Below, in pieces: positions 7,154 to 58,449 of a stretch of DNA of 64,000 nt. Numbering within the stretch: position 1 is the stretch's first letter; each line of letters begins with the position of its first letter. Made by a program: the position numbers and the translations under genes. The DNA lies in contig NZ_FOIU01000001.1 in the NCBI RefSeq assembly GCF_900111495.1, forward strand, positions 620,001-684,000, read 5' to 3'. This DNA is from Chryseobacterium wanjuense (GTDB lineage: Bacteria; Bacteroidota; Bacteroidia; Flavobacteriales; Weeksellaceae). The notes beneath the pieces were generated by a model that worked only from the letters and a program-made list of their open reading frames with translations, searched no databases and had not been told where the DNA came from.

Positions 7154-7212
7154 CAAAACTATTCAGAAATCTTGTGGTAAAAAAGAAATAGCCTTTTCGT
7201 TTTCCGAAAATG
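7154..7212 (-). promoter_or_regulatory. QVGINT promoter with upstream palindromic box
   Basis: Minus-strand -7 box TAGTTTTG at 7154-7161. Exactly 36 bp further upstream is CATTTTCGGAAAACG (7198-7212 read on minus), followed by AAAAGG. There is no TTG at -33, which suggests dependence on an activator. The same box and spacing occur at 14.1, 31.6 and 58.4 kb. Confidence 0.65.
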
Positions 7213-7315
7213 AATAAATTTTAATTTTTAAGTAATTTAAAATCAGGATGTTAAAAATTTAAATAAAAAACTAATAATTCAGTACTTAGTGAAAATAAAA
7301 AGCGGAAATCGCAAT

Positions 7316-7345
7316 GAAAAAGCCTGTTCAAAAAAAGAACAGACT
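7316..7345 (-). terminator. Terminator of the 7471-8928 gene pair
   Basis: Minus-strand stem AGTCTGTTC/GAACAGGCT with a 7-nt loop and a T-run. A duplicate of the terminator at 5382-5411. Between 7213 and 7470 nothing else is visible beyond the copied 3' region. Confidence 0.8.
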
Positions 7346-7470
7346 CACAATAACCTACTAAAATTAAGGGAAATTAAAAACAAAAGGGAATAATCTTTAT
7401 ATTGATATTTGTATTTTTAAGTGTAATGAAAAGTGAGGAGAAATTCCATTACCATTTATAATAAGGGTTT

Positions 7471-8193
7471 TTATAGCTGTACGATCGTAAATAAAGCTCC
7501 TGCTCCAATGGTAAAGTTTACCGTATTTCCAAGACATCCGATATAACAGTGTACCGACCCGAATTTTACAATCTGATCTTTCTTCAGCTCAAAAGTCAAA
7601 GTACCTCCTCTGAAAGCTGCCCCGCCAACACTGTAATCAATCCCTCTAAAAACAAAATTTCTGACTTCATTAGTACCCGTACTGTCATAAACAAAAATGG
7701 TGAACTCAGATAAATTGTTGACCTGACTGGGTCTCAGCGGTGCTCCCATAGACATCTGATAAAGACCATCCTGAGGAACGGTATAGCTGTTGGTTGTGGA
7801 ATTCCAGTTGCCGTCATTCAGAATCACATTCTGGAAAAGCCATGGGTGGGTATCTCCGGTATTGGTGCTGATTATTTCATCTACCGTTTTTCTTCCCGCT
7901 GCAACCACTTTGGGAAGAGATGTAGTACCTGATGTAAGGAATTGCTGCCAAACTACGCCATCACTGTAATAAATTCCGTTATTATTAACACTGTTGTCAT
8001 ATTTCATTGCCCCGGCTCCTGCAGCAGGTGCAGTCTGATTGGTGTTTCCAAAAGCTATGGCAGAATTTCCCGTTGTCGCTCTTGCATCCAAATGTACTCT
8101 GGGCGTTGCTGTATTGATTCCCACTTGTCCTGTTTGTCCGAAAAAAGCTCCGGAAACAAGAACAGAGAGAAATAAAATAAATCTGTTTTTCAT
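7471..8193 (-). CDS. Secreted QVGINT-family protein with C1q-like C-terminus
   Basis: A 240-residue exported protein: signal peptide ending SGAFFGQ, QVGINTATPRVHLDARATTG, then NSAIAFGNTNQTAP, shared almost word for word with the gene upstream. The C-terminal ~130 residues (NDGNWNSTTNSYTVPQDGLY ... GGTLTFELKKDQIVKFGS) recall the order of strands in C1q/TNF-like jelly rolls (inference from pattern only). Such domains form trimers. Second gene of a two-gene unit, 33 bp behind 8227-8928. Function unknown. Confidence 0.78.
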   Translation of the reverse strand: MKNRFILFLSVLVSGAFFGQTGQVGINTATPRVHLDARATTGNSAIAFGNTNQTAPAAGAGAMKYDNSVNNNGIYYSDGVVWQQFLTSGTTSLPKVVAAGRKTVDEIISTNTGDTHPWLFQNVILNDGNWNSTTNSYTVPQDGLYQMSMGAPLRPSQVNNLSEFTIFVYDSTGTNEVRNFVFRGIDYSVGGAAFRGGTLTFELKKDQIVKFGSVHCYIGCLGNTVNFTIGAGALFTIVQL

Positions 8194-8226
8194 TGTCTTC
8201 CAATTTGATATTAAAACTTATTTATT

Positions 8227-8928
8227 TTATGAATTGCTCAGCTGGGTAATCGTGAATCCTGCGTCCGGCGTAACAGTATAAGTTTTTGGGGTGCTACATC
8301 CGTTACAGTATGATGATCCTAATTTTACGACCTGTCCTGCTGTAAGATATAAGGCAAGAGTTCCTCCAGTTGCGGTATAACCTCCAGCTGTGAGTATCGA
8401 TTGAGTGGCGACAATATATCTCGTTTCTGTAGCTCCGTTAAATACATAGATCGTCCAGTTTGCAGAATTGTTGGTAGCGTTTGCATATATTCTTCCAAAT
8501 AAAGATACCTGATAAAACCCTGAAGTAGGAACAACATAGCCGGATGTAGTGTCATTCCAGTTTCCGTCATCTATTACGGTTTCGTGAAAAGTCCATACAT
8601 AAGATTCGTTGGTGTTTGTAGGCCCCATTATCTGTGTATCGTCTTTTTTTCTGGAAGCTACTACTCTGGGAATGAAAACCCCCGCCTGTTTTTCCAAAAT
8701 AGGAATCCAGGTGGTTCCGTTGCTGTAATACAATTGCCCGGTGTCGTACTTCATGGCACCACCTCCGGCAACGGGAGCTGTTTGATTGGTGTTTCCAAAA
8801 GCGATGGCAGAATTTCCTGTTGTTGCTCTTGCATCAAGGTTTACTGTCGGATTGTTGTTTCCTACTCCCACTTGTGCAGAAAAAGCACCGAAAGCAAGAA
8901 GAAATAGCATTAAAAAATTTTTTTTCAT
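8227..8928 (-). CDS. Secreted QVGINT-family protein, C1q-like, first of pair
   Basis: A 233-residue paralogue of 7471-8193. I start at the ATG at 8928 (MKKNFLMLFLLAFGAFSA), a standard signal peptide; the frame is open to 8949, but that part matches the conserved upstream leader TTATGCRTGAYATT seen before other family genes. The opening is QVGVGNNNPTVNLDARATTG; the tail GGTLALYLTAGQVVKLGSSY again recalls C1q-like folds. Its promoter region lacks a clear palindromic box. Function unknown. Confidence 0.77.
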   Translation of the reverse strand: MKKNFLMLFLLAFGAFSAQVGVGNNNPTVNLDARATTGNSAIAFGNTNQTAPVAGGGAMKYDTGQLYYSNGTTWIPILEKQAGVFIPRVVASRKKDDTQIMGPTNTNESYVWTFHETVIDDGNWNDTTSGYVVPTSGFYQVSLFGRIYANATNNSANWTIYVFNGATETRYIVATQSILTAGGYTATGGTLALYLTAGQVVKLGSSYCNGCSTPKTYTVTPDAGFTITQLSNS

Positions 8929-9032
8929 TGTTTCTCTGTTATTATGCATGATATTTTGTTTTCATTTTAATTATTAAAGTCTTGTGTTTTTTCTAATAAA
9001 TAATTAAAATTAATTTTTAAAGTCTTGAAAAA

Positions 9033-9058
9033 GAGTACCCTCAAAAAAAGGGGTACTC
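9033..9058 (-). terminator. Terminator behind the 9206-10927 gene pair
   Basis: GAGTACCC and GGGTACTC pair across a 10-nt loop; on the minus strand the stem is followed by a T-rich stretch (CTTTTTC). It lies 150 bp past the last gene. Confidence 0.65.
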
Positions 9059-9205
9059 AAACTAAATTATACAGATACAATGTATACTGTAAAACATGAC
9101 TGTGAACTTCTAAGCATTTCAATTAAATATTTTCTATCCGTACTGTGGGGAACAATGGACAATAGAAAACTTGTAATGGCTTTAGCAGCATTTGTGTATT
9201 TAGAA

Positions 9206-10060
9206 TCAGTCACCTATTCTTGTTATTAAAAATTGTGTTCCGTCGGCAAAGAGTGTCATTCCCGTTCCGCCACAATTTCCAGATTGTCCTCTTCCTAAGT
9301 TGGTCAGGATCATTTTTCCGTCAGGGAGTGATGCAGATGCATAGGTGATCGTTCCTGTGTGTCTGGATCCTACACCTGCGCCCGTAAGGTGGTCAGACGT
9401 ACTGTGTACTCTGGTAAAAGAAGAAGGTAAAGGAAAATCATAAAAGTATGAACTCAATGTACATCCTCCGTGGCTGGCTGAATATACTACCGTAAAACGA
9501 TACGTTCCTGCAGGGAGTGTAACAAAATGTGTGGTCGCATTATAAGATAATCCCGGTATTCCGTTCTTTATGACAGTCATCGGCATATCCTGTGCACCTC
9601 CGGCGCTTACACCGTTTAGAAAATTAGTAACGTCGGCAGACAGACCAAGCACTGTAGTTCTTGGAAGATCCAGTTCGTTAAGAGATTGTTCTCTTTTTAA
9701 ATAAGAAAAACCTGCCCCCGGACGAACGACACCTAATAAGTCGATATCCTCAGGATTGGGTGCGGGGAGAAGATTGTCTATTCTTACATTATCACCACCG
9801 GTAGTAGCGAAAAATAAAAAGAATTTACTTCTTGGCATACCGGCAGCAAAATAAGGTCCTATATTCATACTTCCGTCTGTATCGATCAGAAAATCGTCAT
9901 AAACCAGAGGGAGTGAAGGCAATCCTCCTGTAGCAGGATTATTCGCTCTGGTATCAAGATGGAAGGGCGCCTGAGGATTTGAAGTTCTGAAACCCACTCT
10001 TTGACTAAACAATGCAGTGCTCATACAGGTAATGGAAAATATTAGTAATAATTTTTTCAT
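9206..10060 (-). CDS. Secreted QVGINT-related protein, divergent
   Basis: A 284-residue exported protein with signal peptide MKKLLLIFSITCMSTALFS. The family opening is altered to QRVGFRTSNPQAPFHLDTRA. The C-terminal half matches the gene upstream: FLNGVSAGG, IKNGIPGLSYNATTHFVTLP, GTYRFTVVY, CTLSSYFYDFP, LGRGQSGNCGGTGMTL. A Cys pair (CTLSS and GNCGG) is conserved in both and may form a disulphide. Second gene of a unit, 45 bp behind 10106-10927. Function unknown. Confidence 0.75.
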   Translation of the reverse strand: MKKLLLIFSITCMSTALFSQRVGFRTSNPQAPFHLDTRANNPATGGLPSLPLVYDDFLIDTDGSMNIGPYFAAGMPRSKFFLFFATTGGDNVRIDNLLPAPNPEDIDLLGVVRPGAGFSYLKREQSLNELDLPRTTVLGLSADVTNFLNGVSAGGAQDMPMTVIKNGIPGLSYNATTHFVTLPAGTYRFTVVYSASHGGCTLSSYFYDFPLPSSFTRVHSTSDHLTGAGVGSRHTGTITYASASLPDGKMILTNLGRGQSGNCGGTGMTLFADGTQFLITRIGD

Positions 10061-10105
10061 TGTAATAAAGATTATCAGTTAAAATTCAGCTTACAGAAAA
10101 ATCCG

Positions 10106-10927
10106 TTAAGCTCCCATTCTGTATATCAATAAGTGTGTAGAATCTTTTACCAGAGTCATACCTGTTCCGGTGCAATTTCCAGCCTGTCCTCTTCCTAATC
10201 TGATAAAAAAGCTGTTGGTAGGGTTTACCAGTTTTACAGAATAACTTATCGTTCCGCCATGATTGGAAACACCTCCTTCTAAATGCGAAGCATTACTCTG
10301 AACTCTTACTGCCGTTCCGTCATTCGGGAAATCAACGAAATATGAGCTTAGAGTACAGCCGGTATTATTATGATCAGCTTCGTATACAAAAGTGAATTGG
10401 TATGTTCCCGGTGGAAGTACAATTTCTCTTGTCGCCGCCGTGAAAGTAAGCCCGGGGATTGCGTTTTTTATCATTGCCATATTCACCACCTGATTGTTTC
10501 CGGGAGCAACTCCATTAAGGAAATTGGTAACGCTAGTGCCTAAAACGAAAAGTGCCGGTCTGGGAATAGAAAGACTTTCTACAGATCCTATTGATCGTAT
10601 TAAACCTGTAGACGTAATACCCAGTAGGTTATCTAGTTGTGGATCACCGGCGACAAGTCCGCCAATCTGTGCAGGATCATTCACCCCGTCGCCGACAATA
10701 TGTAATTTTCTTGCCGGTGTTGTGGTACCGATTCCGACATAGCCATTGGGCGAGGTGATCACAAAATCATTGGCTTGCTGTGCAACGGTAGGTGCCCCTG
10801 TCGCAGGATTGTCTTTTCCGGCGTCGACATGAAACATGCCTTGCGGATTATTTGTATGAATTCCTACTTGAGCCTGCATATATAAAGCAGAAATCAAAAA
10901 AATCGAAAGTAATAGCTTTTTTTTCAT
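10106..10927 (-). CDS. Secreted QVGINT-family protein, first of pair
   Basis: A 273-residue protein with signal peptide ending ALYMQA, then QVGIHTNNPQGMFHVDAGKD and VGIGTTTPARKLHIVGDG. The C-terminal domain is shared with 9206-10060 (IKNAIPGLTFTAATREIVLP ... CTLSSYFVDFP ... LGRGQAGNCTGTGMTL). Upstream at 11011-11026 is a weaker version of the family palindrome (ATTTTCGAAAAA), without the fixed 36-bp spacing. Function unknown. Confidence 0.77.
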   Translation of the reverse strand: MKKKLLLSIFLISALYMQAQVGIHTNNPQGMFHVDAGKDNPATGAPTVAQQANDFVITSPNGYVGIGTTTPARKLHIVGDGVNDPAQIGGLVAGDPQLDNLLGITSTGLIRSIGSVESLSIPRPALFVLGTSVTNFLNGVAPGNNQVVNMAMIKNAIPGLTFTAATREIVLPPGTYQFTFVYEADHNNTGCTLSSYFVDFPNDGTAVRVQSNASHLEGGVSNHGGTISYSVKLVNPTNSFFIRLGRGQAGNCTGTGMTLVKDSTHLLIYRMGA

Positions 10928-11487
10928 AGTTATAATGCGGTTTTATTGTTGATTTTATTTAATTAAGCTCTGTTTATATTGTTTAATACAAAAATATATT
11001 GATTTTATTGTTATTTTCGAAAAAAGCCGTAGAATTAAGCCTACAAATTGTAGAACTAATTCTACAAAGAATGCAGTGAAGTTTTATCGTTAGTTAAAAT
11101 GAAATTCTTATATTAAATAAACTCCCAACAAGAAGCTCGTTGGTCAAAAGTTCTTACAACGGTTACCGAAAAGGAACTCTGGAGCGTTGTGGAGCAGGTT
11201 TAGAACGGCTGGCTTAAAAAAAACCTTATAGATTTTCAAAATCAATAAGGTTTTAATGTATTAACAGACATTTATTTTTTTTCATTTCAAAACAAATTAA
11301 AATTAAAGAATGCGGGTTATATTCCCGCATTCCACCAGCTAAGCGATCACTATTTAAGTTTACAAATTCACAAGATGATATTTAAAACATGTATAAATCC
11401 TGTCACGGCATTTTATCTTATGGATGATATGATATTTAAAACTTACTCTGAAAATTGCTTTCGTAGCCGGGTTATTTAATATTAATC
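10928..11487. other. Intergenic region with two terminator hairpins
   Basis: The weak palindrome lies at 11011-11026. GAATGCGGG/CCCGCATTC (11308-11332, minus strand, T-rich after) probably ends the 11488 transcript. A longer imperfect stem at 11221-11254, with eight T on its minus side, is a second stop. A palindromic stretch around 11040-11065 repeats TAGAATTA/TAGAACTAATTCTA. No gene seen. Confidence 0.55.
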
Positions 11488-12735: not shown

Positions 12736-12746
12736 AAATATCTTTT

Positions 12747-13841
12747 TTAATTAACTGCGTCTCCTGTTACCGTTGCATAAACAGGGCTTTTTCGAATGAT
12801 TCCGATAGCGGAATTCTGGGTTCTGGTTTTCAATCCGCGTGCTGAAGCCAATCCCGGTCCTGCAACCGTAACCTGTCCTGTACCCTGCTGAATAATTACA
12901 CAATGAAATGCATTAGGAAGAGTATCCGGTACAGTGATCGTTACCGGTGTCGAAGACATTACATAGATAAAACCGCCTTCATCAGTAGCCACCAATGCAT
13001 CGGTAGCGGTTGTAATGTTTCTGAAAGGTGTATTAATTTTAGCATAATTTACGCTGTTATCTGCAATTTTAGCAGTAGTAATATCTCCGTCAGCAATGCC
13101 TAATGTGTACGGACTTGCAGCGGTACCTGCTCCGGATCTCGTCAAAGCACCTCCCGCTGTTGCGTTTAATACTTCGTTTCCGATAATTCCGTCTGTTGCT
13201 TCCCAAGAGGGTGCTGTTCCGGCTCCGTTGGATACAAGGACTTGCCCTGCTGTACCTGCACTTCCCGCAACGGTTGCTGTACCACCTACATTGAGTTCGT
13301 TTGTAAGCTGCATGGTTCCGTTGATATGCACTTTTCTTTGAGGGGTGATGGTTCCCATTCCGACTCTGTTATTTTCTCCATCTACGGAAAAAGTATTTCC
13401 ATTAACAGAAAATCCGTGAGCTATCGTAGGAGTAAAACGTAGAAAGTTTGTTCCTTGTGTTACAATTCTGTTTCCTTCGAGTGTGCCGTCGGAATTATAA
13501 ATATTTACAGAACTTGTGGGTGCTGATGTAGGAATCAGTTTTGTCCATGCTGTTCCGTTAAAATAGTAATATCCTACAGCATCGATGTTCACGGCATTTC
13601 CGGCCAAGGTTCCGTTTGCAGTACTGTTTACATAGATTAATGTAGAAGTGGGAATAGCAATCATCGACTGGGCTTTTAATCTGTCTACTCTTGGGATCAA
13701 AAGTCCTTCTACAGATGTTCCTGTCAGATTTTTAGCCGTAATATCTAATGATGCCTGTGGTGTTGAGGTATGCACACCAACCTGTGCAAATGTTATTACA
13801 CCGAATGTAAGTGTAAAAATTGATAATAGTTGTTTTTTCAT
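12747..13841 (-). CDS. Secreted QVGINT-family protein, LDITAKN type
   Basis: A 364-residue mosaic family member. In order: signal peptide (MKKQLLSIFTLTFGVITFA), QVGVHTSTPQASLDITAKNL, the VEGLLIPRVDRLKAQSM block, the GYYYFNGTAWTKL block, the NIYNSDGTLEGNR block, VGMGTITPQRKVHINGTMQL, then NELNVGGTATVAGSAGTAG and VSNGAGTAPSWEATDG. The same blocks recur in other orders at 21966, 22990, 27854 and 57523. The tail (DTLPNAFHCVIIQQGTGQVT) resembles tail-fibre head modules. It leads the unit with the FISUMP gene. Function unknown. Confidence 0.8.
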   Translation of the reverse strand: MKKQLLSIFTLTFGVITFAQVGVHTSTPQASLDITAKNLTGTSVEGLLIPRVDRLKAQSMIAIPTSTLIYVNSTANGTLAGNAVNIDAVGYYYFNGTAWTKLIPTSAPTSSVNIYNSDGTLEGNRIVTQGTNFLRFTPTIAHGFSVNGNTFSVDGENNRVGMGTITPQRKVHINGTMQLTNELNVGGTATVAGSAGTAGQVLVSNGAGTAPSWEATDGIIGNEVLNATAGGALTRSGAGTAASPYTLGIADGDITTAKIADNSVNYAKINTPFRNITTATDALVATDEGGFIYVMSSTPVTITVPDTLPNAFHCVIIQQGTGQVTVAGPGLASARGLKTRTQNSAIGIIRKSPVYATVTGDAVN

Positions 13842-14057: not shown

Positions 14058-14116
14058 CAAATTTATCAGCAAACATATTGTGAGGAAAGAAATACCCTTT
14101 CCATTTTCGAAAAACG
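14058..14116 (-). promoter_or_regulatory. QVGINT promoter with upstream palindromic box
   Basis: Minus-strand -7 box TAAATTTG at 14058-14065 and box CGTTTTTCGAAAATG (14102-14116 on plus), with 36 bp between them. The box is followed on minus by GAAAGG, as at 7.2 and 58.4 kb. Confidence 0.65.
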
Positions 14117-14312: not shown

Positions 14313-15914
14313 TTAATTTTTATTCTTCTTTGTTTCTTCTTGTTCTATAAATGAAATAAAAGTAGAAGGTGAAATTCCTGTAATGGATTTAAAAATAGTG
14401 GTGAATTTACTGTGCGATGAAAAACCGCACTCTTCAGCCAAAGCTCCCACTTTGTATTTTCTGTATTTTTCGGATGTATTTAGCTTATGGATGATGTAGT
14501 TGATTCTTAATTTATTGATATAACTCTTAAAGTCTGTTCCTTTATGTTTTTTCACGACATAAGAAATATATCGGATATTGGTATTAAATTCTGTGGCCAG
14601 ATAGGAAAGGGATATAAAACTGTTGTTATATTTTTCATCTTTTTCAAACTGCTCGAGCTCCGAAAGGATTTTAGCCTCTGTTTCTTTATTGATGGCTATG
14701 TCATTCTGTTTGTTTTCTGCTTCTATTTCTTCGTAGATATTTTCCTCTTCATTTTCATTTTCCTCCATTTCTGAGGTTACTACTTTAGATTCCAACACGT
14801 ATTCTTCCTTTTCTTTATAATGATCGATAATACTTTTGAATTTCTGATATTCGGCTTTGTGTTTCTTTCTATTAATGATGAAAAGAATAGCGAGACTCAA
14901 AATCAGCAGGGAAGCGACACCGATTATAATATTCTTTGTACTGTTCCAGCCTATATATTGCTCTTTTTCTTTTTCTATTTTATCGTAATCATTATCAACA
15001 GTTTTCTTGTACTTATCTTCTGTTTTCTTGAATACTTCTACGAATTTTTTTCTGTATATGCTGGCTTTTTCATATTGCTTTGTCTGCTCATAATATTTTG
15101 CCAGGCCATCGTACACTGTTCTTTTAGCAGCCGGATGATCGGCAGTTTCGGCATATTGCAATCCTTTTAGAAGATACTTTTCAGCCTCTTTATATTGCTT
15201 TTGATTGGTTTTTGATATTCCCAACCCAATATAGCTCAATGCTGTACCGACAAATGTTTCAGGTAAAATTTCTATAGCTTTTAGATTATAGCTATCAGAA
15301 TTTTTATAATCATGCAGCTCAAGATAATTTTGTCCTAAAAGTTGATATGTTCTTCCCAGATTAATTTTATCAGCAGGTATTTTTGAAAGGCATTCAAGTG
15401 ACTGATTCAGATAATGTATTGCGTTTTTGTGGTTTTTCTGTTCCATTTCATAATATCCTAATTCCTGGTAAAAAAGGGATTTTACTTGCGCTTTTTTCTG
15501 TTCATTATTAATTTTATCAGCCAGCTTTAATCCTTCGTCCGCATATGTTTTAGATTTATTATTAAGTCCAATAATTCGATATTCAGAAGCTAGAAGACCA
15601 CGGATTTTTGATTTTAATTCATCATTTTCAGATTTGTCGAGAATATCTTTTGCTTTTTCCGCAAACTTTATACTTTCTTCATTTTTATTTTGTTGCAGGT
15701 AGATGTTAGCGCTTAACATGAAAGCTCTTCCCTTATGTTCAGGAGTAGTAGCCGCTGCATACATCGAATCGGCAATCTTTAATGCACGAGGGGTATCTTT
15801 TGCCGCAACTTCTGTTAAAGTTTTCATATACAACTGTTCAAAAGGATCATTGCTTTTTTGGGCCCATCCCATCGTAGAATACAGGAAAATAAGAAAAAGT
15901 AAATTTTTAGTCAT
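14313..15914 (-). CDS. TPR - transmembrane - AraC-type DNA-binding regulator
   Basis: A 533-residue membrane-anchored regulator. Signal peptide at 1-18 (ending GWAQ). About residues 30-300 are TPR helices (ALSYIGLGISKTNQKQYKEA and similar repeats) that should lie in the periplasm. One TM segment at about 327-346 (NIIIGVASLLILSLAILFII) is followed by an acidic linker and an AraC/HTH_18 domain at about 425-525 (INYIIHKLNTSEKYRKYKVG, EECGFSSHSKFTTIFKSITG). This suggests that an extracellular or periplasmic signal is passed straight to DNA. Its 3' end faces the QVGINT promoter at 14.1 kb, and a shorter relative (30667) sits beside another such promoter. Confidence 0.85.
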   Translation of the reverse strand: MTKNLLFLIFLYSTMGWAQKSNDPFEQLYMKTLTEVAAKDTPRALKIADSMYAAATTPEHKGRAFMLSANIYLQQNKNEESIKFAEKAKDILDKSENDELKSKIRGLLASEYRIIGLNNKSKTYADEGLKLADKINNEQKKAQVKSLFYQELGYYEMEQKNHKNAIHYLNQSLECLSKIPADKINLGRTYQLLGQNYLELHDYKNSDSYNLKAIEILPETFVGTALSYIGLGISKTNQKQYKEAEKYLLKGLQYAETADHPAAKRTVYDGLAKYYEQTKQYEKASIYRKKFVEVFKKTEDKYKKTVDNDYDKIEKEKEQYIGWNSTKNIIIGVASLLILSLAILFIINRKKHKAEYQKFKSIIDHYKEKEEYVLESKVVTSEMEENENEEENIYEEIEAENKQNDIAINKETEAKILSELEQFEKDEKYNNSFISLSYLATEFNTNIRYISYVVKKHKGTDFKSYINKLRINYIIHKLNTSEKYRKYKVGALAEECGFSSHSKFTTIFKSITGISPSTFISFIEQEETKKNKN

Positions 15915-27853: not shown

Positions 27854-29128
27854 ATGAAAAAAGCTTTATCTGCAGCTATATTACTAACAGCCGCCTCATT
27901 TTTTAATGCACAGGTTGGTATTAATACACCTACTCCAAGTTCTACATTGGATATTACTGCAAAAAATTCTACGGGTACTTCAAAAAATGTTGATGGTCTT
28001 CTCGTTCCGAGAGTAGACAGAGAAAGAGCGCAATCTATGAGTTCTATCCCTGTCTCTACTTTGATTTTTGTTGATAGTGTGGTAAGAGGAACTCAAACAG
28101 GAAATGCCGTAAATGTCGATACGGTAGGGTATTACTATTTTGACGGCAATGTCTGGGTAAAGCTGAATGCAGGAAGCTCCGGCTCTTCGGTGAATATCTA
28201 TAACTCGGATGGTACTGTTTTGACTAACAGAACCGTAACACAGAATGATAAAACCCTTACTTTTACAGGTACGGCCACCAACGCATTTTCAGTAGACGGA
28301 AAAACTTTTTCGGTAGATGCAGCCAATGATAGAGTAGGAATAGGTACAATGGCTCCGGTTGCGAAACTTCATGTGGAAGGTATTGAGTCTCAATTTACAA
28401 ACGCAACTTCAAAATGGGCGCTGTCTCCGGAAGGAACATCGCCAAATTCACAACTAAGCCTTGTTGACAGAAATAATAATATTCGCCGTATCATAATGCA
28501 GGAAAACGGAAATGTATTTTTGGGCGGAAATATGGGGAGTGTTGGAGCTAATGCGACCATAAGTGCTGTAGGAGGAAATGTTGGAATTGCCAATACAGCT
28601 CCTACCAATACCTTGGATGTAAATGGTACGGCAAGAGTAAGAACTGTGAATTCTGTTGCAGACAATGTAATTTCGACTCCGGTACACGCAGATGCTAATG
28701 GTGTTTTTGTAAAAATGAACCCTGGTACCTATGGGAGTGTTATTGCATCTTCTTCTCCTGCTATTACGCCCGGAGCTACAGCTACTGTAATATCAGGATT
28801 AGCATTAGGAGCTATTTATAAAGCTGTTGTTTCTGTCTCGAATTGGTGTACGGATGTCGCTATTGCCGAATATTATATTTATAATGGAAGTTATCCCACC
28901 CTTACCGGGGACGACGGAGTTGTAGGAACTACAGGATCTAAACCTACATTTACCCAAGCCAGCACAGTGACTACCCATACAACATGGAATCCGATAGGTT
29001 GTCAGGATGGAAGTAATACCACCGGTTTTAACTATACTATTTCGCTAGTGGGAGGTGGTACTGTCAATATTACCAACAACGGAAATATTGTTAAAAATTA
29101 TAGAATTGTTCTTACAAGAATGAACTAA
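27854..29128 (+). CDS. Secreted QVGINT-family protein, largest member here
   Basis: A 424-residue exported protein: signal peptide MKKALSAAILLTAASFFNA, QVGINTPTPSSTLDITAKNS, VDGLLVPRVDRERAQSM, STLIFVDSVVRGTQTG, GYYYFDGNVWVKLN, NIYNSDGTVLTNR, VGIGTMAPVAKLHVEGIESQ, then a second fibre-like repeat VGIANTAPTNTLDVNGTARV. The C-terminal domain (ASTVTTHTTWNPIGCQDGSN ... KNYRIVLTRMN) is specific to this copy. Function unknown. Confidence 0.8.
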   Translation: MKKALSAAILLTAASFFNAQVGINTPTPSSTLDITAKNSTGTSKNVDGLLVPRVDRERAQSMSSIPVSTLIFVDSVVRGTQTGNAVNVDTVGYYYFDGNVWVKLNAGSSGSSVNIYNSDGTVLTNRTVTQNDKTLTFTGTATNAFSVDGKTFSVDAANDRVGIGTMAPVAKLHVEGIESQFTNATSKWALSPEGTSPNSQLSLVDRNNNIRRIIMQENGNVFLGGNMGSVGANATISAVGGNVGIANTAPTNTLDVNGTARVRTVNSVADNVISTPVHADANGVFVKMNPGTYGSVIASSSPAITPGATATVISGLALGAIYKAVVSVSNWCTDVAIAEYYIYNGSYPTLTGDDGVVGTTGSKPTFTQASTVTTHTTWNPIGCQDGSNTTGFNYTISLVGGGTVNITNNGNIVKNYRIVLTRMN

Positions 29129-30386: not shown

Positions 30387-30666
30387 AAATACTTTTTATT
30401 GATTGCAAATGTAATAATAATGCCTACAAATTAGTCATCATCTGATTAAAATAGTTACAACTAAGTTTTGATTATTTTTTTAATGGAAGGTTAAAAAAAG
30501 AGAAGGGTAAGTTATTAAAATAAACGATTGTTTAATTTTTAGTTTAAAATATTAATTAATATCGTAAAATTTTAATAAAATATAAATTATTCTTAAGTTT
30601 GCACCCAACAAAAAGACACCTCTGAGATGATGAATTATTATAATAACCATGATAATTTGTTGCTTT

Positions 30667-31542
30667 ATGTCTAAAAGTTTTTACAAGCTTTTGTTTTTTA
30701 TTGTTGCTGCTTTACTCACATTTCCCACTCATTTTCTTCACCACACGAAAAATTTCAAAAAATTATTTCCTTTAGCAGAAATCAATATCTATAAAATTCC
30801 TTTGCCTGAGAAAGATTATGCAAAAACAGTTGCAGCAATAACGGTTTCTCCTGAAAATTCAACAATAAAATCTGAAAAAAGAAGCACAGAGATAAGTATT
30901 GCTAAAAATATCGCGATTATTATTCTGGCAGCCGCTTTGGTTGGATTGTTTGTCTATTGTAAATCCAAACAGAAAAAACAGTTTTCGAAATTCAGAAATA
31001 TTATCAGAAACCACTATGTTCAAATTAATAAAGAAAACAATTCCGAACCAGTAAAGGAAGTTGCAGAACCGGATTTTTCAAATATTTCCGTAGAAGAGGT
31101 TTTTAAGAAAAAAGATGATCATAAAAAAAGGAATGAATCCCTCATGACATCCGAGACAGAAACAAAATTGCTTGAACTTTTGAATGATTTTGAGAAAGGA
31201 AGTCTTTACAATAATAAGAATATGTCCCTGCCTTTTCTGGCCGGAGAACTCAATACCAATACAAAATATCTTTCATACATTATCAATCAACATAAAAGCG
31301 CAGATTTTAAAACGTATATTAATCGTTTGAGGATAAATTACATCATCGATAAGCTTATTAATGAAGAAAAATACCGGCAATATAAGATCAGTATCCTTGC
31401 TGATGAGTGCGGTTTTTCTTCCCACAGTAAGTTTGCCGCCGTTTTTAAAGCGGAAACCGATTTTTCTCCATCTTCCTATATAAAGCTTTTAGATTCTGAA
31501 AACCAATCAGATAAACATGTTCATTTTCAGGAAAACAATTAG
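30667..31542 (+). CDS. Membrane-anchored AraC-type regulator lacking the TPR sensor
   Basis: A 291-residue protein from ATG 30667 (an in-frame ATG at 30649 is possible). The N-terminal hydrophobic segment SFYKLLFFIVAALLTF is followed by a short periplasmic part and a TM helix (NIAIIILAAALVGLFVY). The AraC HTH is almost the same as in 14313-15914 (INYIIDKLINEEKYRQYKIS, DECGFSSHSKFAAVFKAETD). The TPR sensor of the longer relative is missing, replaced by ~60 residues. It lies directly upstream of the QVGINT promoter at 31.6 kb, a natural target. Confidence 0.8.
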   Translation: MSKSFYKLLFFIVAALLTFPTHFLHHTKNFKKLFPLAEINIYKIPLPEKDYAKTVAAITVSPENSTIKSEKRSTEISIAKNIAIIILAAALVGLFVYCKSKQKKQFSKFRNIIRNHYVQINKENNSEPVKEVAEPDFSNISVEEVFKKKDDHKKRNESLMTSETETKLLELLNDFEKGSLYNNKNMSLPFLAGELNTNTKYLSYIINQHKSADFKTYINRLRINYIIDKLINEEKYRQYKISILADECGFSSHSKFAAVFKAETDFSPSSYIKLLDSENQSDKHVHFQENN

Positions 31543-31573: not shown

Positions 31574-31633
31574 CATTTTCCCGAAAACGGATAAGTAATT
31601 GTTTTATGCCAATCGATCACTTCAATATCTTTG
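31574..31633 (+). promoter_or_regulatory. QVGINT promoter with upstream palindromic box
   Basis: CATTTTCCCGAAAACG (31574-31589) followed by GATAAG; 36 bp further is TATCTTTG (31626-31633), a perfect -7. Same box and spacing as at 7.2, 14.1 and 58.4 kb. A TTG at 31599-31601 is present. The leader before 31825 is about 185 nt, in which I see nothing further. Confidence 0.7.
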
Positions 31634-31824: not shown

Positions 31825-32889
31825 ATGAGAACAACTTTAACGGTCGTTATGGCATCTGTATTGTCCAATCTTGCCTATTCGCAAGTAGGAATCAATACGG
31901 CTGACCCGATAACGAGTCTGGATGTCGTTGCCAAAACAAACGACGGATCTTCTGCGGAAGGAATTTTACCACCGAGACTTACGGGAGATCAGATCAAAGC
32001 GGGAGATAACCAGTATTTTCCACAACATGCGGGAGTCATTGTATATGCAACAGCTCCTGTAGGTGTACCCAGTACCAAAACCATCAACATTACTTCTGTA
32101 GGATTGTATTATTTTGATGGTGCGGTTTGGGTAAAAATGATGCAGGGAGACGGGAGAAACTTCAGCACACAGGCGGCAGGTGATATTAAGCATTCTATAC
32201 AGCCTATTGATCACAATGGGTGGTATTTACTGGATGGAAGAGACGTTTCCACTCTTCCCGCAGGAGCAATGAATGCCGCGGTAAGCTTAGGCTTCCCGTC
32301 CAAATTGCCAAATGCTGCAGATAGGGTTCTAAAAACAAAAAACAATGTTGAAATTTTAGGTAGCGTTGGCGGAAGTAATACGTTACAGATTGAAAAAGAA
32401 AATCTTCCGAGTGTAAATTTTACGGGTACTATCAGCGGAAATACCAACGCCGCAGGAGTTCATACCCACACCATGAGCGGAACCGCGATAAGTGCGGGAG
32501 CGCATACCCATTCCGTATCGGGAACTGCAGCCAGTGCAGGAGCGCACGCTCACGGCCCGACTTCTGGAGGAGGTTTTCTATTGGGAGGAACAAATGCCGG
32601 AAACAACGGAACAGGTAATTATCAGGGGAACGGTTCGCCGGGAGCCTGGGGAAATGTCGGTATTGGAGGAACTACGGCCAATGCAGGAGCTCATACACAT
32701 TCTGTGACAGGAACCGGAGCCAATGCAGGAGCCCATACCCATAATCTTGATGTAGATGCTGCCAATGCGGGAAATCATACCCATACGGTGACAGGAACGG
32801 CAACGGTAAGCTCAGGAGGAACGGGTGAAGCTTTGGATAACAAATCTGCGTATCTGGTAGTGAATACCTTTATCTATCTGGGAGAATAA
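31825..32889 (+). CDS. Secreted QVGINT fibre-like protein with HxH repeats and tail-collar-like domain
   Basis: A 354-residue exported protein. Signal peptide, QVGINTADPITSLDVVAKTN, a PRLTGDQIKAGDNQYFPQHA block and YYFDGAVWVKMMQGDGRNFS. A phage tail-collar-like segment follows (NGWYLLDGRDVSTLPAGA ... NAADRVLKTKNNVEI), then at residues about 205-335 repeats of AGxHTH: VHTHTMSGT, AHTHSVSGT, AHAHGPTSG, AHTHSVTGT, AHTHNLDVD, NHTHTVTGT. The end (KSAYLVVNTFIYLGE) is typical of short tail fibre tips. In phage T4 gp37 such His-x-His pairs bind iron along a trimeric needle; I infer the same here. Confidence 0.85.
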   Translation: MRTTLTVVMASVLSNLAYSQVGINTADPITSLDVVAKTNDGSSAEGILPPRLTGDQIKAGDNQYFPQHAGVIVYATAPVGVPSTKTINITSVGLYYFDGAVWVKMMQGDGRNFSTQAAGDIKHSIQPIDHNGWYLLDGRDVSTLPAGAMNAAVSLGFPSKLPNAADRVLKTKNNVEILGSVGGSNTLQIEKENLPSVNFTGTISGNTNAAGVHTHTMSGTAISAGAHTHSVSGTAASAGAHAHGPTSGGGFLLGGTNAGNNGTGNYQGNGSPGAWGNVGIGGTTANAGAHTHSVTGTGANAGAHTHNLDVDAANAGNHTHTVTGTATVSSGGTGEALDNKSAYLVVNTFIYLGE

Positions 32890-32911
32890 TTTTAAGATTT
32901 TTCTATACAAT

Positions 32912-32937
32912 AATCGGGGTGATTGCCCGGTTTTTTT
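32912..32937 (+). terminator. Terminator of the HxH fibre gene
   Basis: ATCGGG/CCCGGT stem, 7-nt loop, run of seven T. Confidence 0.7.
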
Positions 32938-32957
32938 CAGTCAAGTTTTTTTAAAAG

Positions 32958-43975: not shown

Positions 43976-43986
43976 AATTTACAAAT

Positions 43987-52948: not shown

Positions 52949-52964
52949 AGTAAAGATGTTAAAG

Positions 52965-54113: not shown

Positions 54114-54148
54114 GGTGTAAAATTAGATACTATTTGGATCAAATTGTT

Positions 54149-54175: not shown

Positions 54176-54960
54176 TGTCAGTTTTTGCAGAAAATATCAG
54201 GTTTTTGAGAGATCAGGAAAAAATATCGCAACAGAAGCTTGCCGATGCTCTTTTCATTACAAGAGAGCGGTATGCAAAATATGAAGATGGCAGATCGGAG
54301 CCACCTATTGAGATCCTGCTGAGGATATCAAGGTATCATAAAGTGAGCATCGACCTTTTGGTGAGTATCGATATCAGGAAATATCCTTTGGATAGCCTGG
54401 TAAATCTTCCAGACAATAAAATTTTACTGCCCGTAGTGATTGATCCTGAAGGAAACAAATATATTGAAATTGTCCCTCAGAAAGCTTCTATGGGGTATCT
54501 GAAAGGCTTTAGTGATCCGGAATATATTGAAAGCCTTCCGCGAATCCAGCTTCCGTTTTTGGGGCATGGAATATTCAGGGGATTTATGGCTGACGGGGAT
54601 TCAATGCCGCCTTTTGCTGACGGAACCTGTGTGATAGGGGAATATGTCGAAACCCTGGATGATTTAAAAAAGGGAAAAGAATATATGTTTATCACCCAAC
54701 AGGGCTATACCTTCAAAACATTTGTAAAAAAAAATACCCGAAGTATAACGGTAGTCGCAGATAATACATTCTATGATCCGTACGATATTCCTTTAAAGGA
54801 TATGATCCAGATATGGCGTTATGTACGAGGGATTTTACCCCAGGATTATAAACCTCATTATCTTCCGGATCATGTCAAGCTTAAAGATTTGGTGGATGAA
54901 GCAAAACGGAGTATCAGTAATTTGGAAACGAAACTTTTTCATTTGAATAACAATGAGTAA
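54175..54960 (+). CDS. LexA-like S24 repressor with XRE DNA-binding domain
   Basis: A 261-residue regulator. XRE HTH at residues 5-62 (ISQQKLADALFITRERYAKY), S24 autoprotease fold at about 125-245 with catalytic Ser143 (GDSMPPFADG) and Lys181 (YTFKTFVKK). The cleavage region reads KASMGY (103-108), where relatives usually have KAAAGY or an Ala-Gly bond; here the bond would be Met-Gly. Expected to repress itself and dinB-dnaE2 until DNA damage triggers RecA-assisted cleavage. A second domain after 230 is helical. Confidence 0.87.
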   Translation: MSVFAENIRFLRDQEKISQQKLADALFITRERYAKYEDGRSEPPIEILLRISRYHKVSIDLLVSIDIRKYPLDSLVNLPDNKILLPVVIDPEGNKYIEIVPQKASMGYLKGFSDPEYIESLPRIQLPFLGHGIFRGFMADGDSMPPFADGTCVIGEYVETLDDLKKGKEYMFITQQGYTFKTFVKKNTRSITVVADNTFYDPYDIPLKDMIQIWRYVRGILPQDYKPHYLPDHVKLKDLVDEAKRSISNLETKLFHLNNNE

Positions 54961-55059
54961 AAACTTCCCCGAAGGGAAGTTATAAAACACAAATGATGAA
55001 AAAAAAATCCCTTTTTTGAATGGGACAGCATAAAGTTAAGAATTTAAGATAGAATTACA

Positions 55060-55660
55060 ATGGATCAGCTGAGTTTATTTGATGCAAAAGAATTTTATGA
55101 ATTTCCCAAAGACCTTATAGAATATCAGGAAGATTTTTTAAGCAGAGCAGAAGCCGACATGCTCAAAGACCAACTGCTGCATACTGTTCCCTGGGAGCAG
55201 CGGACCCAAAAGATGTATGATAAAATGGTTTTAACACCACGCCTTACGGCTTGGTACGGTGAGCGTAATAAATCCTATAACCCGGAGGAAAATTCTTTAC
55301 CTACTGATTCATGGATACCTGAACTCTTGCTGCTTAAAGAGAGGATAGAAAAAGAATTCGGCTATCGGTTCAACGGAGTACTGCTCAATTTGTACCGTGA
55401 TAATAATGATTCGGTGGATAAGGAAAGCCGTTACGGCAAAAGGCCTGTGATTGCGTCAATCAGTTTGGGACAAACCAGAAATTTTGATTTTAGAAAAATG
55501 GATCATCATCAAAGCAAATACAGCCTGCCCCTTCCGCATGACTCTTTGCTGATTATGAAAGGGGATATGCAGGAGCACTGGGAGCCATGGTATTGCTAAA
55601 TCTTCAGTCCCGATGAAAGAGCGGATTAACCTAACGTTCCGATGGATTAAGGAACCCTAA
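55060..55660 (+). pseudogene. Broken AlkB-type 2OG-Fe(II) dioxygenase
   Basis: Resembles short AlkB demethylases (LNLYRDNNDSV, RPVIASISLGQTRNFDFRK, YSLPLPHDSLLIMKGDMQEH). Two lesions: near 55416 the segment that should read DSV-(G/A)WHS-D lacks four codons, removing the iron-binding His of HxD; and an extra C at 55585 shifts the frame, giving a premature stop at 55597-55599. Skipping that base restores HGIAKSSVPMKERINLTFRW to a stop at 55660, including the NLTFR 2OG-binding Arg motif. It lies behind the LexA-like gene, its natural SOS partner. Confidence 0.88.
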
Positions 55661-55717
55661 CCAAACAGAATAAAAAACTATTTTACGATTGCTTATCATT
55701 GGTAACTCTCAAATCAT

Positions 55718-55893
55718 TTAATAATAAATTTTGCCTTTTTCAATTCTCAAGACTTTCCCTTTTCCATTTTTTTGACGGTCCGGATAACCGTTTCAATGCA
55801 TAAGCCTGTTAAACTGGTCAGCTGTCTTCTGCTGAATGGAACCATATAAGGATAGGGAGATTGATTTGAATTATAGTCCTTATAATAATCCAT
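55718..55893 (-). pseudogene. C-terminal fragment of a Crp/Fnr regulator
   Basis: Minus-strand reading gives YPYMVPFSRRQLTSLTGLCI and ETVIRTVKKMEK, the recognition helix of Crp/Fnr proteins. A base is missing near 55755, after which another frame continues KVLRIEKGKIYY to a stop at 55718. The whole cyclic-nucleotide-binding half is absent: the fragment is cut at about 55893, where the protease gene begins on the other strand. Confidence 0.75.
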
Positions 55894-55894
55894 A

Positions 55895-56692
55895 ATGGTT
55901 ATATTAACCTCATGTAACACAAACGATGATGAAACTATTTTAGAAGGCAAACAGGCAGCAGCAGTAGATCGGCAGGGCTGGACTCAAACATCTGTACTTC
56001 TTGCTGGTCTGAACAATCCGGAAGATACGAGTTTCATGCGATCTGAATTGAATAAGTTAATTAATTTTTGGGGAATTCCTGTTCAAATGATGTTTGTAAA
56101 TGACCCAGTGGATCCAAACGGGAGTATGAATGCCATATCATACGATAATGGCTCCATGATTTATTATGGATATACTTTTTATAATGACGCAAAAAGTAAA
56201 GCAGGAAATATCGGTAATGTATTCATTCTAGGGCATGAGTATGGGCACCAGATTCAATACAAGTTCCAGTTGCCTCAAATAATAACAGAAAATACTTCAA
56301 GAGGTATAGAGCTTGAAGCAGACGGATTGTCTGGATATTATCTTGGACGCAACCAGGTCAGTTTTCAACAAGTTGCGATAGCCGCTAATTATGCTGCAGC
56401 TATAGGTGACTTTAATATAACGGATCCTAGTCATCACGGTATTCCATCGCAAAGAAGATCTGCTGTCCGTTTAGGTTATTTACTCAGTGCAAACGCTTTG
56501 ACTCCGCAACAATTTGACATGTACTTTAAATATTATTATTTTGGGGTATTAAATGGACAATATAAAATTAAAGATAACAGCTCTATCTCCATTGATCCTG
56601 AACTAGATCAAAATATTAGCAAGCATCTTGAAGAGATACAAAGAATTAAGAACGGTGAAATGTCTTATGAGGAATATCGTAATCTTAAATAA
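55895..56692 (+). CDS. Zinc metallopeptidase lipoprotein, 5'-truncated
   Basis: The 265-residue frame contains a metalloprotease motif H-E-Y-G-H (FILGHEYGHQIQYKFQLP) and a downstream Glu in GIELEADGLSGYYLG, the pattern of YpfJ-like neutral zinc metallopeptidases. The end has SHHGIPSQRRSAVRLGYLLS. It starts MVILTSCNTNDDETILEG: LTSC looks like a lipobox, but the hydrophobic signal that should precede it is missing. The DNA upstream is the Crp/Fnr fragment, so a recombination joint at about 55894 probably removed the 5' end. If made, it would be cytoplasmic. Confidence 0.7.
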   Translation: MVILTSCNTNDDETILEGKQAAAVDRQGWTQTSVLLAGLNNPEDTSFMRSELNKLINFWGIPVQMMFVNDPVDPNGSMNAISYDNGSMIYYGYTFYNDAKSKAGNIGNVFILGHEYGHQIQYKFQLPQIITENTSRGIELEADGLSGYYLGRNQVSFQQVAIAANYAAAIGDFNITDPSHHGIPSQRRSAVRLGYLLSANALTPQQFDMYFKYYYFGVLNGQYKIKDNSSISIDPELDQNISKHLEEIQRIKNGEMSYEEYRNLK

Positions 56693-57005
56693 ATTGCCTA
56701 TGTGATCTTGTAATTTCTAGCTAATTTACAAGCAAGCTTAATCATCTGAGACAACAAGAGCGAACTTTATTTTTACTCGATTGGGATGTAATCTGATCGT
56801 ATTTTAAGGCATTGACAAAAGTTTAAAAACTATTTAATCAAATTTCACTGTTGATACTAAAGTATATACATTCAGTGTTTTTGTGTGCGGGAGTAAGAAT
56901 ACTCCCGCTTTCTTGTTGTTAAAACACAAAATTTTTTTAGTTATAATGAATTGCTGATTTTGGAAAAACTAAGGATATATAGTAAGAACCTTTCTTACAA
57001 TTTCT
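56693..57005 (+). terminator. Gap with the protease terminator
   Basis: GCGGGAGT/ACTCCCGC (56887-56908) with a 6-nt loop and T-rich tail is a good plus-strand terminator. The rest of the stretch shows nothing. Confidence 0.6.
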
Positions 57006-57228
57006 CTATTCCTTATATTTTTCATGGTATGTACGATTTCTATAGAATTTAATGACTTTTCTAATTTTACTCATGTCTGTTATTTTATTTGCCATAACCT
57101 GTAATTTTTTTACGAATATATGACTGTAACAACATGAAAAAATCTGTAGTATTTTATTGCAAATTTCGAATACAAGGTTGTCAATTTGAACTGAAATTAG
57201 GGGGTCAGTTTGCTCCGAAATTAGTGGA
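57006..57228 (-). mobile_element. IS21-family remnant (left end and start of istA)
   Basis: Two near-identical 24-bp units lie in tandem at 57181-57204 and 57205-57228 (TCARTTTGNNCNGAAATTAG), like the multiple terminal repeats of IS21 elements. Reading minus from them, an ATG at 57095 opens MANKITDMSKIRKVIKFYR, the usual start of Bacteroidota IstA; it stops at 57006 after 29 codons. The rest of istA, istB and the other end are not found. Confidence 0.65.
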
Positions 57229-57522
57229 TACTACATGGTCAATATTACTGAGATTTACATCTTAGTGACGGATGTAATGCTTTCAAGTGATGATATTTTC
57301 ATTATCAACTTTCTCCAATTGATAGAGATAAATATATTTGCATATCAAATGTTGGGAGGGTACCGCATGTGTTAAGGGAGTGATCTTAATACCTATCTTC
57401 ATAAATAATAGATTTTCCATAAAATCCAAAGGGATCATAACAACTCCAAATGGTCCTTATAAAAGAACTTACTACAAAGTAAAGGATATTTTAATCTTCT
57501 TGTTGTTAATTTTCATATATTG
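57229..57522. other. Gap without a recognisable gene
   Basis: A 69-codon ORF (57338-57547) has no family likeness and overlaps the end of the next gene; not accepted. Nothing else seen. Confidence 0.4.
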
Positions 57523-58308
57523 CTATAGTTCCTGGATAAGAATATAGGTAGCAGGGGTCTTGCCTAAGGGATCATTCGGAAAAAGTCCATAGGTATATGA
57601 AGGTCCGAAAGTAGTTAACTTAACAGTCACAGGCGTATTACCCGTTTGGATAACGGAAGTGGCGAGACTTATTCCTGCGTCCTTCACAGATTCTGTACTA
57701 GCCTCCTGGTACCCTGTAATATTAACAACACCTACTCGGTTTCCTGTGGTGGCGTCCAAAAAATGAAATCTCATCCATGCTTCACCATCTGGTACCGTGG
57801 AGCTGTAAAGCCAGCTTACATTGCCATGCAATAAAAATGTTTTGTTGGGAGGTAAAGTTATGTTGCTGCCTGATACACTAATTAAGTCGGCATTGACTCC
57901 TGTTTTAGTTTGCCATACAATATCACCCTGCTGCATTAATTGAGCCTGGTTTTTACCAATATATGCAAATATTTTCTGTGTTGTTGCTGTTGTAATAAAC
58001 TTTTGCCATACATTGCCGTCAAAATAATAAAATCCTACAGTATCAATATTTACAGCGTTACCGGCCTGAGAGCCGGTAGCAGCGTTATTTACATAAATCA
58101 TGGTAGAAACAACAATACCTACCATACTTTGTGCTCTCTGCCTGTCTACACGGGGAATCACCAAGCCGTCTACATTTGTGGAAGTGCCGGTAGGATTTTT
58201 AGCATTAATGTATAATGTAGAAACGGGGAAAGGTGTGTTAATTCCTATTTGTGCATTAATGGTTATCCCTAAGATTAAAGCAAAAATTATTAAGAGTTGT
58301 TTTTTCAT
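57523..58308 (-). CDS. Secreted QVGINT-family protein, LDITAKN type
   Basis: A 261-residue exported protein: signal peptide MKKQLLIIFALILGITINA, QIGINTPFPVSTLYINAKNP, VDGLVIPRVDRQRAQSM, STMIYVNNAATGSQAG, GFYYFDGNVWQKF, then a unique C-terminal beta domain (FAYIGKNQAQLMQQGDIVWQ ... EAWMRFHFLDATTGNRVG). It stands among mobile-element debris, 14 kb from the nearest relative, with its own promoter and the shared palindromic box at 58435. Function unknown. Confidence 0.8.
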   Translation of the reverse strand: MKKQLLIIFALILGITINAQIGINTPFPVSTLYINAKNPTGTSTNVDGLVIPRVDRQRAQSMVGIVVSTMIYVNNAATGSQAGNAVNIDTVGFYYFDGNVWQKFITTATTQKIFAYIGKNQAQLMQQGDIVWQTKTGVNADLISVSGSNITLPPNKTFLLHGNVSWLYSSTVPDGEAWMRFHFLDATTGNRVGVVNITGYQEASTESVKDAGISLATSVIQTGNTPVTVKLTTFGPSYTYGLFPNDPLGKTPATYILIQEL

Positions 58309-58390
58309 TTTCGTTGTTTTTAGAATCTACTTGAATAAATTGTATAGATTTTGTTAGTATAAATTGTCAGACTACACTGTAGTTTTTTTG

Positions 58391-58449
58391 TAAAAATATA
58401 AAGAAGAAAATTTTTACAAAATAAAAAGCTTTTCCATTTTTCGAAAATG
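58391..58449 (-). promoter_or_regulatory. QVGINT promoter with upstream palindromic box
   Basis: Minus-strand -7-like TATTTTTA (58391-58398) and box CATTTTCGAAAAATG (58435-58449), with 36 bp between. GGAAAAG follows the box as in the other three copies. Confidence 0.6.

What the first reader, a model, noticed from the sequence alone, without database searches (positions are those of the whole stretch)
7154..58449. Shared palindromic box at a fixed 36 bp from the -7 of four QVGINT promoters
At 7198-7212, 14102-14116, 31574-31589 and 58435-58449 the consensus CRTTTTC..GAAAAYG, followed by RWAARG, lies with exactly 36 bp between it and a TAnnTTTG-type -7 (TAGTTTTG, TAAATTTG, TATCTTTG, TATTTTTA). 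The loci are up to 51 kb apart, lie on both strands, and sit in unrelated surroundings. No good -33 TTG is present in three of them, as expected for an activator site. This points to a dedicated regulon for the secreted fibre-like proteins. Spacing counted by eye.
Basis: partly seen in the sequence, partly recalled or inferred. Interest (0 to 1): 0.75.

Follow-up and report, generated by a model that had tools for sequence, protein, structure and literature searches.

The report
Palindromic switch for bacterial surface-fibre genes
A paired DNA signal set exactly 36 bases ahead of the promoter core recurs across Chryseobacterium beside genes for AraC-type regulators, most of them apparently membrane-bound, and before genes for secreted fibre-like proteins, so it is very probably the docking site by which those regulators switch the fibre genes.

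Summary
All four window sites have box-N36-(-7). I count 12 boxes at exactly 36 bp in the genome, 10 before QVGINT-type genes; with spacing free, 7 of 12 hits fall at 36. Among 84,980 species 36 of 51 matching stretches are Chryseobacterium. Of 37 orthologues of regulator 30649-31542, 36 carry the box at 36 bp, 12-52 bp after their stop, and one at 35. The box follows part of the HTH_18 (AraC-type) regulator tree and its arms change together. Best reading: an operator bound by dimers of mostly TPR-transmembrane-AraC regulators encoded nearby, just upstream of -33. Outer half-sites differ by regulator, so the window probably holds two sister regulons, not one. Most QVGINT genes have no box. One target is predicted to end in a TNF/C1q-like jelly roll, with stalk repeats like Bdellovibrio MAT fibres. 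Unexpected: in 27 of 37 orthologous loci the fibre gene is broken or gone, yet operator and -7 persist. Binding, direction of control and signal are untested.

The parts
7198..7212 (-). operator core CATTTTCGGAAAACG, outer half AAAAGGCTATTTC (type I)
7154..7161 (-). -7 element TAGTTTTG, 36 bp from the box
6326..7120 (-). target: secreted QVGINT protein with predicted TNF/C1q-like C-terminal jelly roll
5534..6319 (-). second QVGINT gene, 6 bp after the first, probably same operon
   Evidence: spacing; inference
14102..14116 (-). operator core CGTTTTTCGAAAATG, outer half GAAAGGGTATTTC (type I)
14058..14065 (-). -7 element TAAATTTG, kept in three orthologous loci
14313..15914 (-). probable regulator: apparent signal peptide (by eye), TPR repeats, one TM peak (about 329-347), C-terminal HTH_18
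12747..13841 (-). target: QVGVHT-type secreted protein
31574..31589 (+). operator core CATTTTCCCGAAAACG inside a longer, slightly offset dyad, outer half GATAAGTAATTG (type II)
31626..31633 (+). -7 element TATCTTTG
30649..31542 (+). probable regulator: HTH_18 protein with hydrophobic N-terminus and TM peak (84-102), no TPR domain found
31825..32889 (+). target: QVGINT protein with tail-fibre-like C-terminal part
32911..32952 (+). strongly conserved 3' element (terminator-like hairpin, T-run, CAGTCAAG, T-run)
58435..58449 (-). operator core CATTTTCGAAAAATG, outer half GAAAAGCTTTTTA (type I-like)
58391..58398 (-). -7 element TATTTTTA; this site also has a TTG 18 bp upstream
57523..58308 (-). target: QIGINT secreted protein

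Best explanation
The box is the inner core of a dyad operator (about 36-40 bp, two inverted half-sites of about 18 bp) bound by a dimer of AraC-type HTH_18 regulators. Most members of this branch look like membrane-anchored one-component sensors (apparent signal peptide, TPR repeats presumably in the periplasm, one TM helix, cytoplasmic HTH_18); a few are short HTH-only forms. With the -7 at -12 to -5, the core lies at about -64 to -49 and the downstream half-site ends next to the -33 region, which is poor in three of the four window sites. The bound regulator therefore probably recruits RNA polymerase (class II-like activation), and the fixed 36 bp keeps it in contact. The inner core is shared by the branch; the outer half-sites are specific to each regulator, so the window probably holds two sister regulons: 14313-15914 with 12747 and, in trans, 6326/5534 and 57523; and 30649-31542 with 31825. 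Targets are secreted, probably trimeric surface fibres. Shown: spacing, genome-wide and genus-wide recurrence, regulator-box linkage, coupled arm changes, outer-site similarity to orthologous sites. Inferred: binding, dimerisation, activation, TPR sensing, the trans pairs.
For: Spacing: 7 of 12 at 36 in the own genome, 20 of 30 in 59 genomes, 48 at 36 against at most 3 at any other spacing in a strict scan of 101 loci, most of the 48 being orthologues. Linkage: 36 of 37 orthologues of 30649-31542 have the box at 36 bp, 12-52 bp after the stop; the 37th at 35. Specificity to a branch: 23 box rows of 73 need 8 changes on the HTH tree against 19.7 shuffled, 0 of 500 as low; they lie in two groups of 34 rows together, the other 39 rows have none. 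Box before TPR-AraC genes themselves at four loci: L034, L043, L048 (the same locus as L166), L168. Coupled arm changes: 9 cells changed on both sides against 3.1 shuffled (0/500), sliding controls at most 4. Outer half-sites score best with sites of orthologous or like regulators in other species (small reference sets of 3-5). A right-half-only type I pattern, made from the four known sites and allowed one mismatch, finds them plus one new site before a QVGINT gene and one false hit. -7 position from PMC9723704 (passages).
Against: No binding or expression data. Orthologues are related, so 36 of 37 is not 36 independent events. Within the two box-bearing groups 11 of 34 tree rows were labelled as having no box; L163 shows none at the place where its sister L162 has one, and L150 has only a degenerate copy. 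The outer flanks are only partly symmetric: 103 of 216 positions match against 90.7 expected, 82 of 5000 re-deals as high. 58435 is assigned to type I only moderately (8.1 against 6.1 bits) and 858825 to no type clearly. In the loose scan some other spacings also rise (up to 26 against 71 at 36). Regulator 30649-31542 has no TPR domain, so sensing by TPR cannot hold for it. In most group A loci there is no fibre gene left behind the promoter. The genes at C3:35-36 kb have boxes but none of the 12 HTH paralogues beside them.
Confidence: 0.84

Rival explanations
1. Another transcription factor binds the box, for example the small HTH_28/HTH_Tnp-like proteins found beside several QVGINT clusters, and the AraC-type genes are only neighbours.
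For: Such genes lie near QVGINT clusters (window 59993-60316; L013 4507-5351), one within 1.6 kb of the 58435 box, and one lies about 390 nt downstream of the C3:87742 box.
Against: The box tracks part of the HTH_18 tree over 37 orthologous loci and beyond, sits right behind or before their genes, and outer half-sites agree between orthologous regulators. The small HTH proteins were not tested the same way.
Confidence: 0.08
2. Same operator and regulator, but the regulator represses the fibre genes (no class II activation).
For: Nothing computed here separates activation from repression; one site (58435) has an acceptable -33.
Against: Upstream position (about -64 to -49), weak -33 in three of four sites and a strictly fixed distance are typical of activators (general knowledge).
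Confidence: 0.12
3. The similarity is inherited: promoters were copied together with QVGINT and regulator genes, and no binding protein keeps the box or the spacing.
For: Group A sites are orthologues; several own-genome sites lie in clusters of similar genes.
Against: Between 21 geneless orthologues box 0.876, first 16 bp of spacer 0.855 and -7 0.968 mean identity stand against 0.525 for spacer 17-36 and 0.495 for four-fold sites: selection, with the length of the freely drifting part kept. Arms change together.
Confidence: 0.04
4. The box is an RNA hairpin or terminator of the upstream regulator gene rather than a DNA site.
For: It is an inverted repeat 12-52 bp after the stop codon in group A.
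Against: AT-rich stem, no direct T-run as in a usual terminator, fixed distance to a -7, and the same box at sites with no gene ending within 250 bp upstream (7198) or no same-strand gene ending nearby upstream (58435, C3:96218). A terminator-like element lies further down.
Confidence: 0.03

Closest known systems
AraC/XylS-family activators with class II operators (AraC I2, MelR, RhaS; operators recalled)
   Same: C-terminal two-HTH domain (HTH_18/HTH_AraC); NCBIfam hits far below cut-off to RhaS, MelR, FeaR; site ends beside the -35/-33 region.
   Different: Membrane anchor and TPR part instead of a cytoplasmic ligand domain; inverted-repeat operator shared by a branch of paralogues; Bacteroidota -7 at a fixed 36 bp.
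FimS-FimR of Porphyromonas gingivalis
   Same: Periplasmic TPR sensor in the inner membrane controlling surface fimbriae (PMC11053733, passages read).
   Different: FimS is a histidine kinase with a separate response regulator; here sensor and DNA-binding part would be one protein, and the HTH is AraC-type. NCBIfam FimS model hit only at E 1.1e-3.
Bacteroides hybrid two-component systems and ToxR/CadC one-component regulators (recalled)
   Same: Transmembrane sensors with a DNA-binding end; HTCS also end in HTH_18.
   Different: No kinase or receiver domain was found in 14313-15914 or 30649-31542 at E 1e-3; ToxR/CadC use winged helices.
Bdellovibrio mosaic adhesive trimer (MAT) fibres
   Same: The profile of 6326-7120 and relatives matches Bd2133 (8ond) at E 4.7e-8 for the whole chain (best single stretch 3.4e-5) over GNVGIGT-P-KLEV stalk repeats; QVGINT protein 27854-29128, which has no box, matches Bd3182 (8ojn) at E 1.2e-5 (PMC10769870, passages).
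   Different: The Chryseobacterium proteins are much shorter, and trimer formation is untested; the head of 6326-7120 is predicted to be TNF/C1q-like.

Membership tests
AraC/XylS family (for 14313-15914 and 30649-31542) | C-terminal HTH_18/AraC domain above curated cut-off | tested here: met
   HTH_18 52.6 and 44.2 bits against cut-off 33.6; HTH_AraC 29.3 and 28.4 against 26.6
AraC/XylS family (for 14313-15914 and 30649-31542) | binds DNA and regulates adjacent genes | not testable with these tools
   only linkage and conservation
Transmembrane one-component regulator | sensor and HTH in one chain with a TM helix, no kinase or receiver | tested here: met
   for 14313-15914: hydropathy peak 3.1 at 329-347, Pfam TPR and HTH plus a sub-threshold DUF2207_C hit only; 30649-31542 has a TM peak but no TPR, so its sensor part is unidentified; topology not tested
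Bacteroidota housekeeping promoter | TAnnTTTG -7 element | tested here: met
   TAnnTTTG exactly at three window sites, TATTTTTA at 58391-58398
Bacteroidota housekeeping promoter | -33 TTG 17-23 bp before the -7 (range recalled) | tested here: not met
   absent at three of four window sites, present at 58435 (read)
MAT fibre superfamily (targets) | stalk repeats of the Bd2133/Bd3182 kind | tested here: inconclusive
   met for the box-bearing target 6326-7120 as a profile and for the box-less 27854-29128; targets 31825-32889 and 12747-13841 gave no PDB hit by phmmer; others not tested
MAT fibre superfamily (targets) | trimeric surface fibre with adhesive tip | not testable with these tools

The most novel reading that the evidence does not exclude
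In the type II lineage the promoter has outlived its gene: in 27 of 37 orthologous loci no ORF above 58 aa remains, yet operator, 36-bp spacing, -7 and a strongly conserved downstream terminator-like element are kept under selection. The regulator would now drive a short non-coding transcript (about 150-250 nt), a small RNA born from the leader and 3' end of a lost fibre mRNA.
Probability: 0.35. Interest if true: 0.78.

Novelty: new variant of a known kind. Interest (0 to 1): 0.62.

Why it matters
It gives a testable regulatory code for a large, almost unannotated class of secreted fibre-like proteins in Chryseobacterium: a regulator, an operator with a shared core and regulator-specific outer half-sites, and a strict promoter distance. 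That allows target prediction from sequence and suggests a role for a branch of TPR-transmembrane-AraC proteins. Duplicated sensor-plus-fibre cassettes with diverging operator halves are a natural series for studying how paralogous regulators become insulated from each other. The promoter kept after gene loss is a possible case of a regulatory RNA arising from a dead gene.

Tried and rejected
Considered and rejected: chance; a box common to all QVGINT genes (8 of 43 motif sites have one close upstream, by coordinates); a box common to all TPR-AraC paralogues (39 of 73 tree rows lie outside the two box-bearing groups and have none). Generic palindromes near 36 bp beside the more distant paralogues: only scattered ones. 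A conserved RNA fold in the geneless transcripts: only the terminator-like hairpin and a short second stem, 8 pairs, 1 of them with a double change. Rfam: nothing at these sites in the window (gathering threshold) or in four loci (E up to 0.5). Literature: of eight searches, five asked about this regulator, operator or target family; from their listings (0 to 12 titles each; one search listed 10 of 878) I saw nothing on it. That covers only an open-access library. NCBIfam gave no family for 4 of 4 QVGINT proteins; PHROGs none for 2 of 6, only families of unknown function for 3, tail fibre for 1.

Biases: genome-contig hits are exact-pattern hits, so conservation was re-tested on loci drawn by the regulator protein. 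The 23 boxes were picked by hand from sites and variants found earlier, some by a palindrome scan, which favours pairing. In one search the two C3 regulators were labelled box-bearing because boxes lie in the same cluster, L094 by its variant box, L101 (a 2-mismatch site) was labelled none, and only 9 of 37 group A rows were kept. The identities use 21 of 22 geneless loci (L141 dropped because the element regex missed it; it is). Of 128 rows, 30 came with loci, 70 more were listed for fetching and 60 of these fetched.
Full report
OBSERVATION. Only two fit the literal consensus; CRTTTT-N3/4-AAAAYG fits all four. In the whole genome this form with spacing free from 22 to 52 gives 12 hits, 7 at exactly 36 (the four window sites and C3:88128, C3:95345, C3:96218); the reversed control gives 1. 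A core-only search at 36 gives 8 hits, adding C1:858825, C1:861293, C3:35725, C3:36118 and C3:87742 (about 0.05 expected from composition; controls 0 and 1). Together that is 12 boxes. Ten stand before QVGINT-type genes (C3:35725 by coordinates), one before a DUF6759 gene, and one about 390 nt before a small HTH gene. The genome has 43 strict QVGINT motif sites, of which 8 have a box close upstream on the same strand: a sub-regulon, not the whole family.

RECURRENCE. In 84,980 species genomes the N2 form at 36 gives 51 stretches: 36 in Chryseobacterium, 1 in Epilithonimonas, 14 elsewhere (7 in other Bacteroidota, 7 outside). In 29 of the 36 the box begins 12-32 bp after the stop of an HTH_18 gene like window 30649-31542, in the same arrangement. 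In 3 it precedes a TPR-AraC gene, in 3 a QVGINT gene (one of them also behind a TPR-AraC gene), in 1 another apparently secreted protein. None of the 14, nor the Epilithonimonas locus, has such an HTH gene in the stretch held. In 59 genomes (own included) with spacing free, 20 of 30 hits are at 36; reversed control 2.

TEST FREE OF THE PATTERN. Loci were drawn by the HTH protein in 60 genomes of the genus (own included). Of 37 close orthologues, 36 have the box (at most 2 mismatches of 12) at 36 bp, 12-52 bp after the stop; L145 has it at 35. In a strict scan of all 101 loci, 48 hits are at 36, most of them these orthologues, and at most 3 at any other spacing; the reversed control has at most 1 at any spacing. 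The looser scan has 71 at 36, 3-26 at others, and 3 at 36 in the reversed control. More distant paralogues lack the box. On a tree of 73 HTH domains the label needs 8 changes against 19.7 for shuffled labels (0 of 500 as low); all 23 box rows fall in two groups of 21 and 13 rows (deep forks and root are poorly supported). Of the own genome's 12 paralogues the five closest have boxes: three directly beside, the two short C3 ones within about 4 kb in the same cluster; none of the other seven has a convincing one.

OPERATOR ANATOMY. The arms change together: CATATTcgcgAATATG in L152 stands against CAGATTcgcgAATCTG in its orthologue L153; other variants are TTTTTTCagGAAAAAG and GATTTTcagAAAATC. 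Over 23 hand-picked boxes 9 cells are changed on both sides against 3.1 in shuffles (0/500), and 4 pairs against 2.0 (19/500). Some sites extend to long dyads (L154, C3:96218, 858825); over 12 own sites the outer flanks match more than re-dealt ones, but modestly (103 of 216 against 90.7; 82 of 5000). The 16 bp after the core vary by regulator. Scored with small sets of sites of orthologous or like regulators in other species, 7198 and 14102 are clearly type I (15.5 and 18.2 bits), 58435 moderately (8.1 against 6.1), 31574 type II (12.4), the four C3-cluster sites type III (6.9-11.8), 861293 type I (14.3) and 858825 none clearly. A type I right-half pattern made from four sites finds those four (three in the window, and 861293), one new site before a QVGINT gene (C3:36118), and one false hit without left arm.

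MECHANISM. In Flavobacterium psychrophilum TAnnTTTG lies at -12 to -5 (PMC9723704, passages), which puts the core at about -64 to -49 and the downstream half-site next to -33. Regulator 14313-15914 has TPR repeats, one strong TM peak and HTH_18. TPR sensing in the periplasm has a parallel in FimS of P. gingivalis (PMC11053733, passages). Activation is my inference from position, weak -33 and rigid spacing.

PROMOTER WITHOUT GENE. In 27 of 37 group A loci no ORF above 58 aa remains before the 3' element; the other 10 have one of 296 aa or more. In several genome contigs relatives the aligned gene is visibly degraded. Yet mean pairwise identity among 21 geneless loci is 0.876 (box), 0.855 (next 16 bp), 0.968 (-7) and 0.978 (3' element), against 0.525 for spacer 17-36 and 0.495 for four-fold sites of the regulator. 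The 3' element, searched as an exact pattern, occurs once in each of 20 of 59 genomes, all of this genus. The body between is far less conserved and no conserved fold joins the two ends, so a small RNA is possible but unproven.

Noticed in passing
window 32911-32952 and equivalents in group A loci: Strongly conserved element (hairpin CGGGGTTGATTGCCCGG in most relatives, T-run, CAGTCAAG, T-run); the loop TTGATTG could pair with CAGTCAA. More conserved than a terminator seems to need.
   Followed up: partly
window 30649-31542: Regulator is 297 aa without a TPR domain, where most orthologues have open frames of about 530-578 aa; 6 of 37 orthologues (this one included) have frames of 211-319 aa.
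   Followed up: partly
L109 3125-9760 (own contig C2): Distant TPR-AraC gene with a weak box-like site, then a short ORF with a GG-leader-like start and export genes (HlyD-like, peptidase-ABC-like): looks like a peptide export cluster (reading by eye).
   Followed up: no
window 59993-60316; L013 4507-4839 and 4905-5351; L108 7333-8149; L111 3592-3939 and 8533-8958: Small HTH_28/HTH_Tnp-like genes, sometimes in pairs, recur beside QVGINT clusters (three tested, the rest by eye).
   Followed up: no
own contig C3:35725-36175: Two divergent boxes before two divergent QVGINT genes, with none of the 12 HTH paralogues nearby.
   Followed up: partly
group A loci with the gene, just before the QVGINT start: Possible leader hairpin GTATAAAATA..TATTTTATAC with varying but matching arms (by eye).
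   Followed up: no
L036 6960-7260 (-), L032 4856-4901 (-): Rfam hits 5_ureB_sRNA and Acido-Lenti-1 above gathering score.
   Followed up: no
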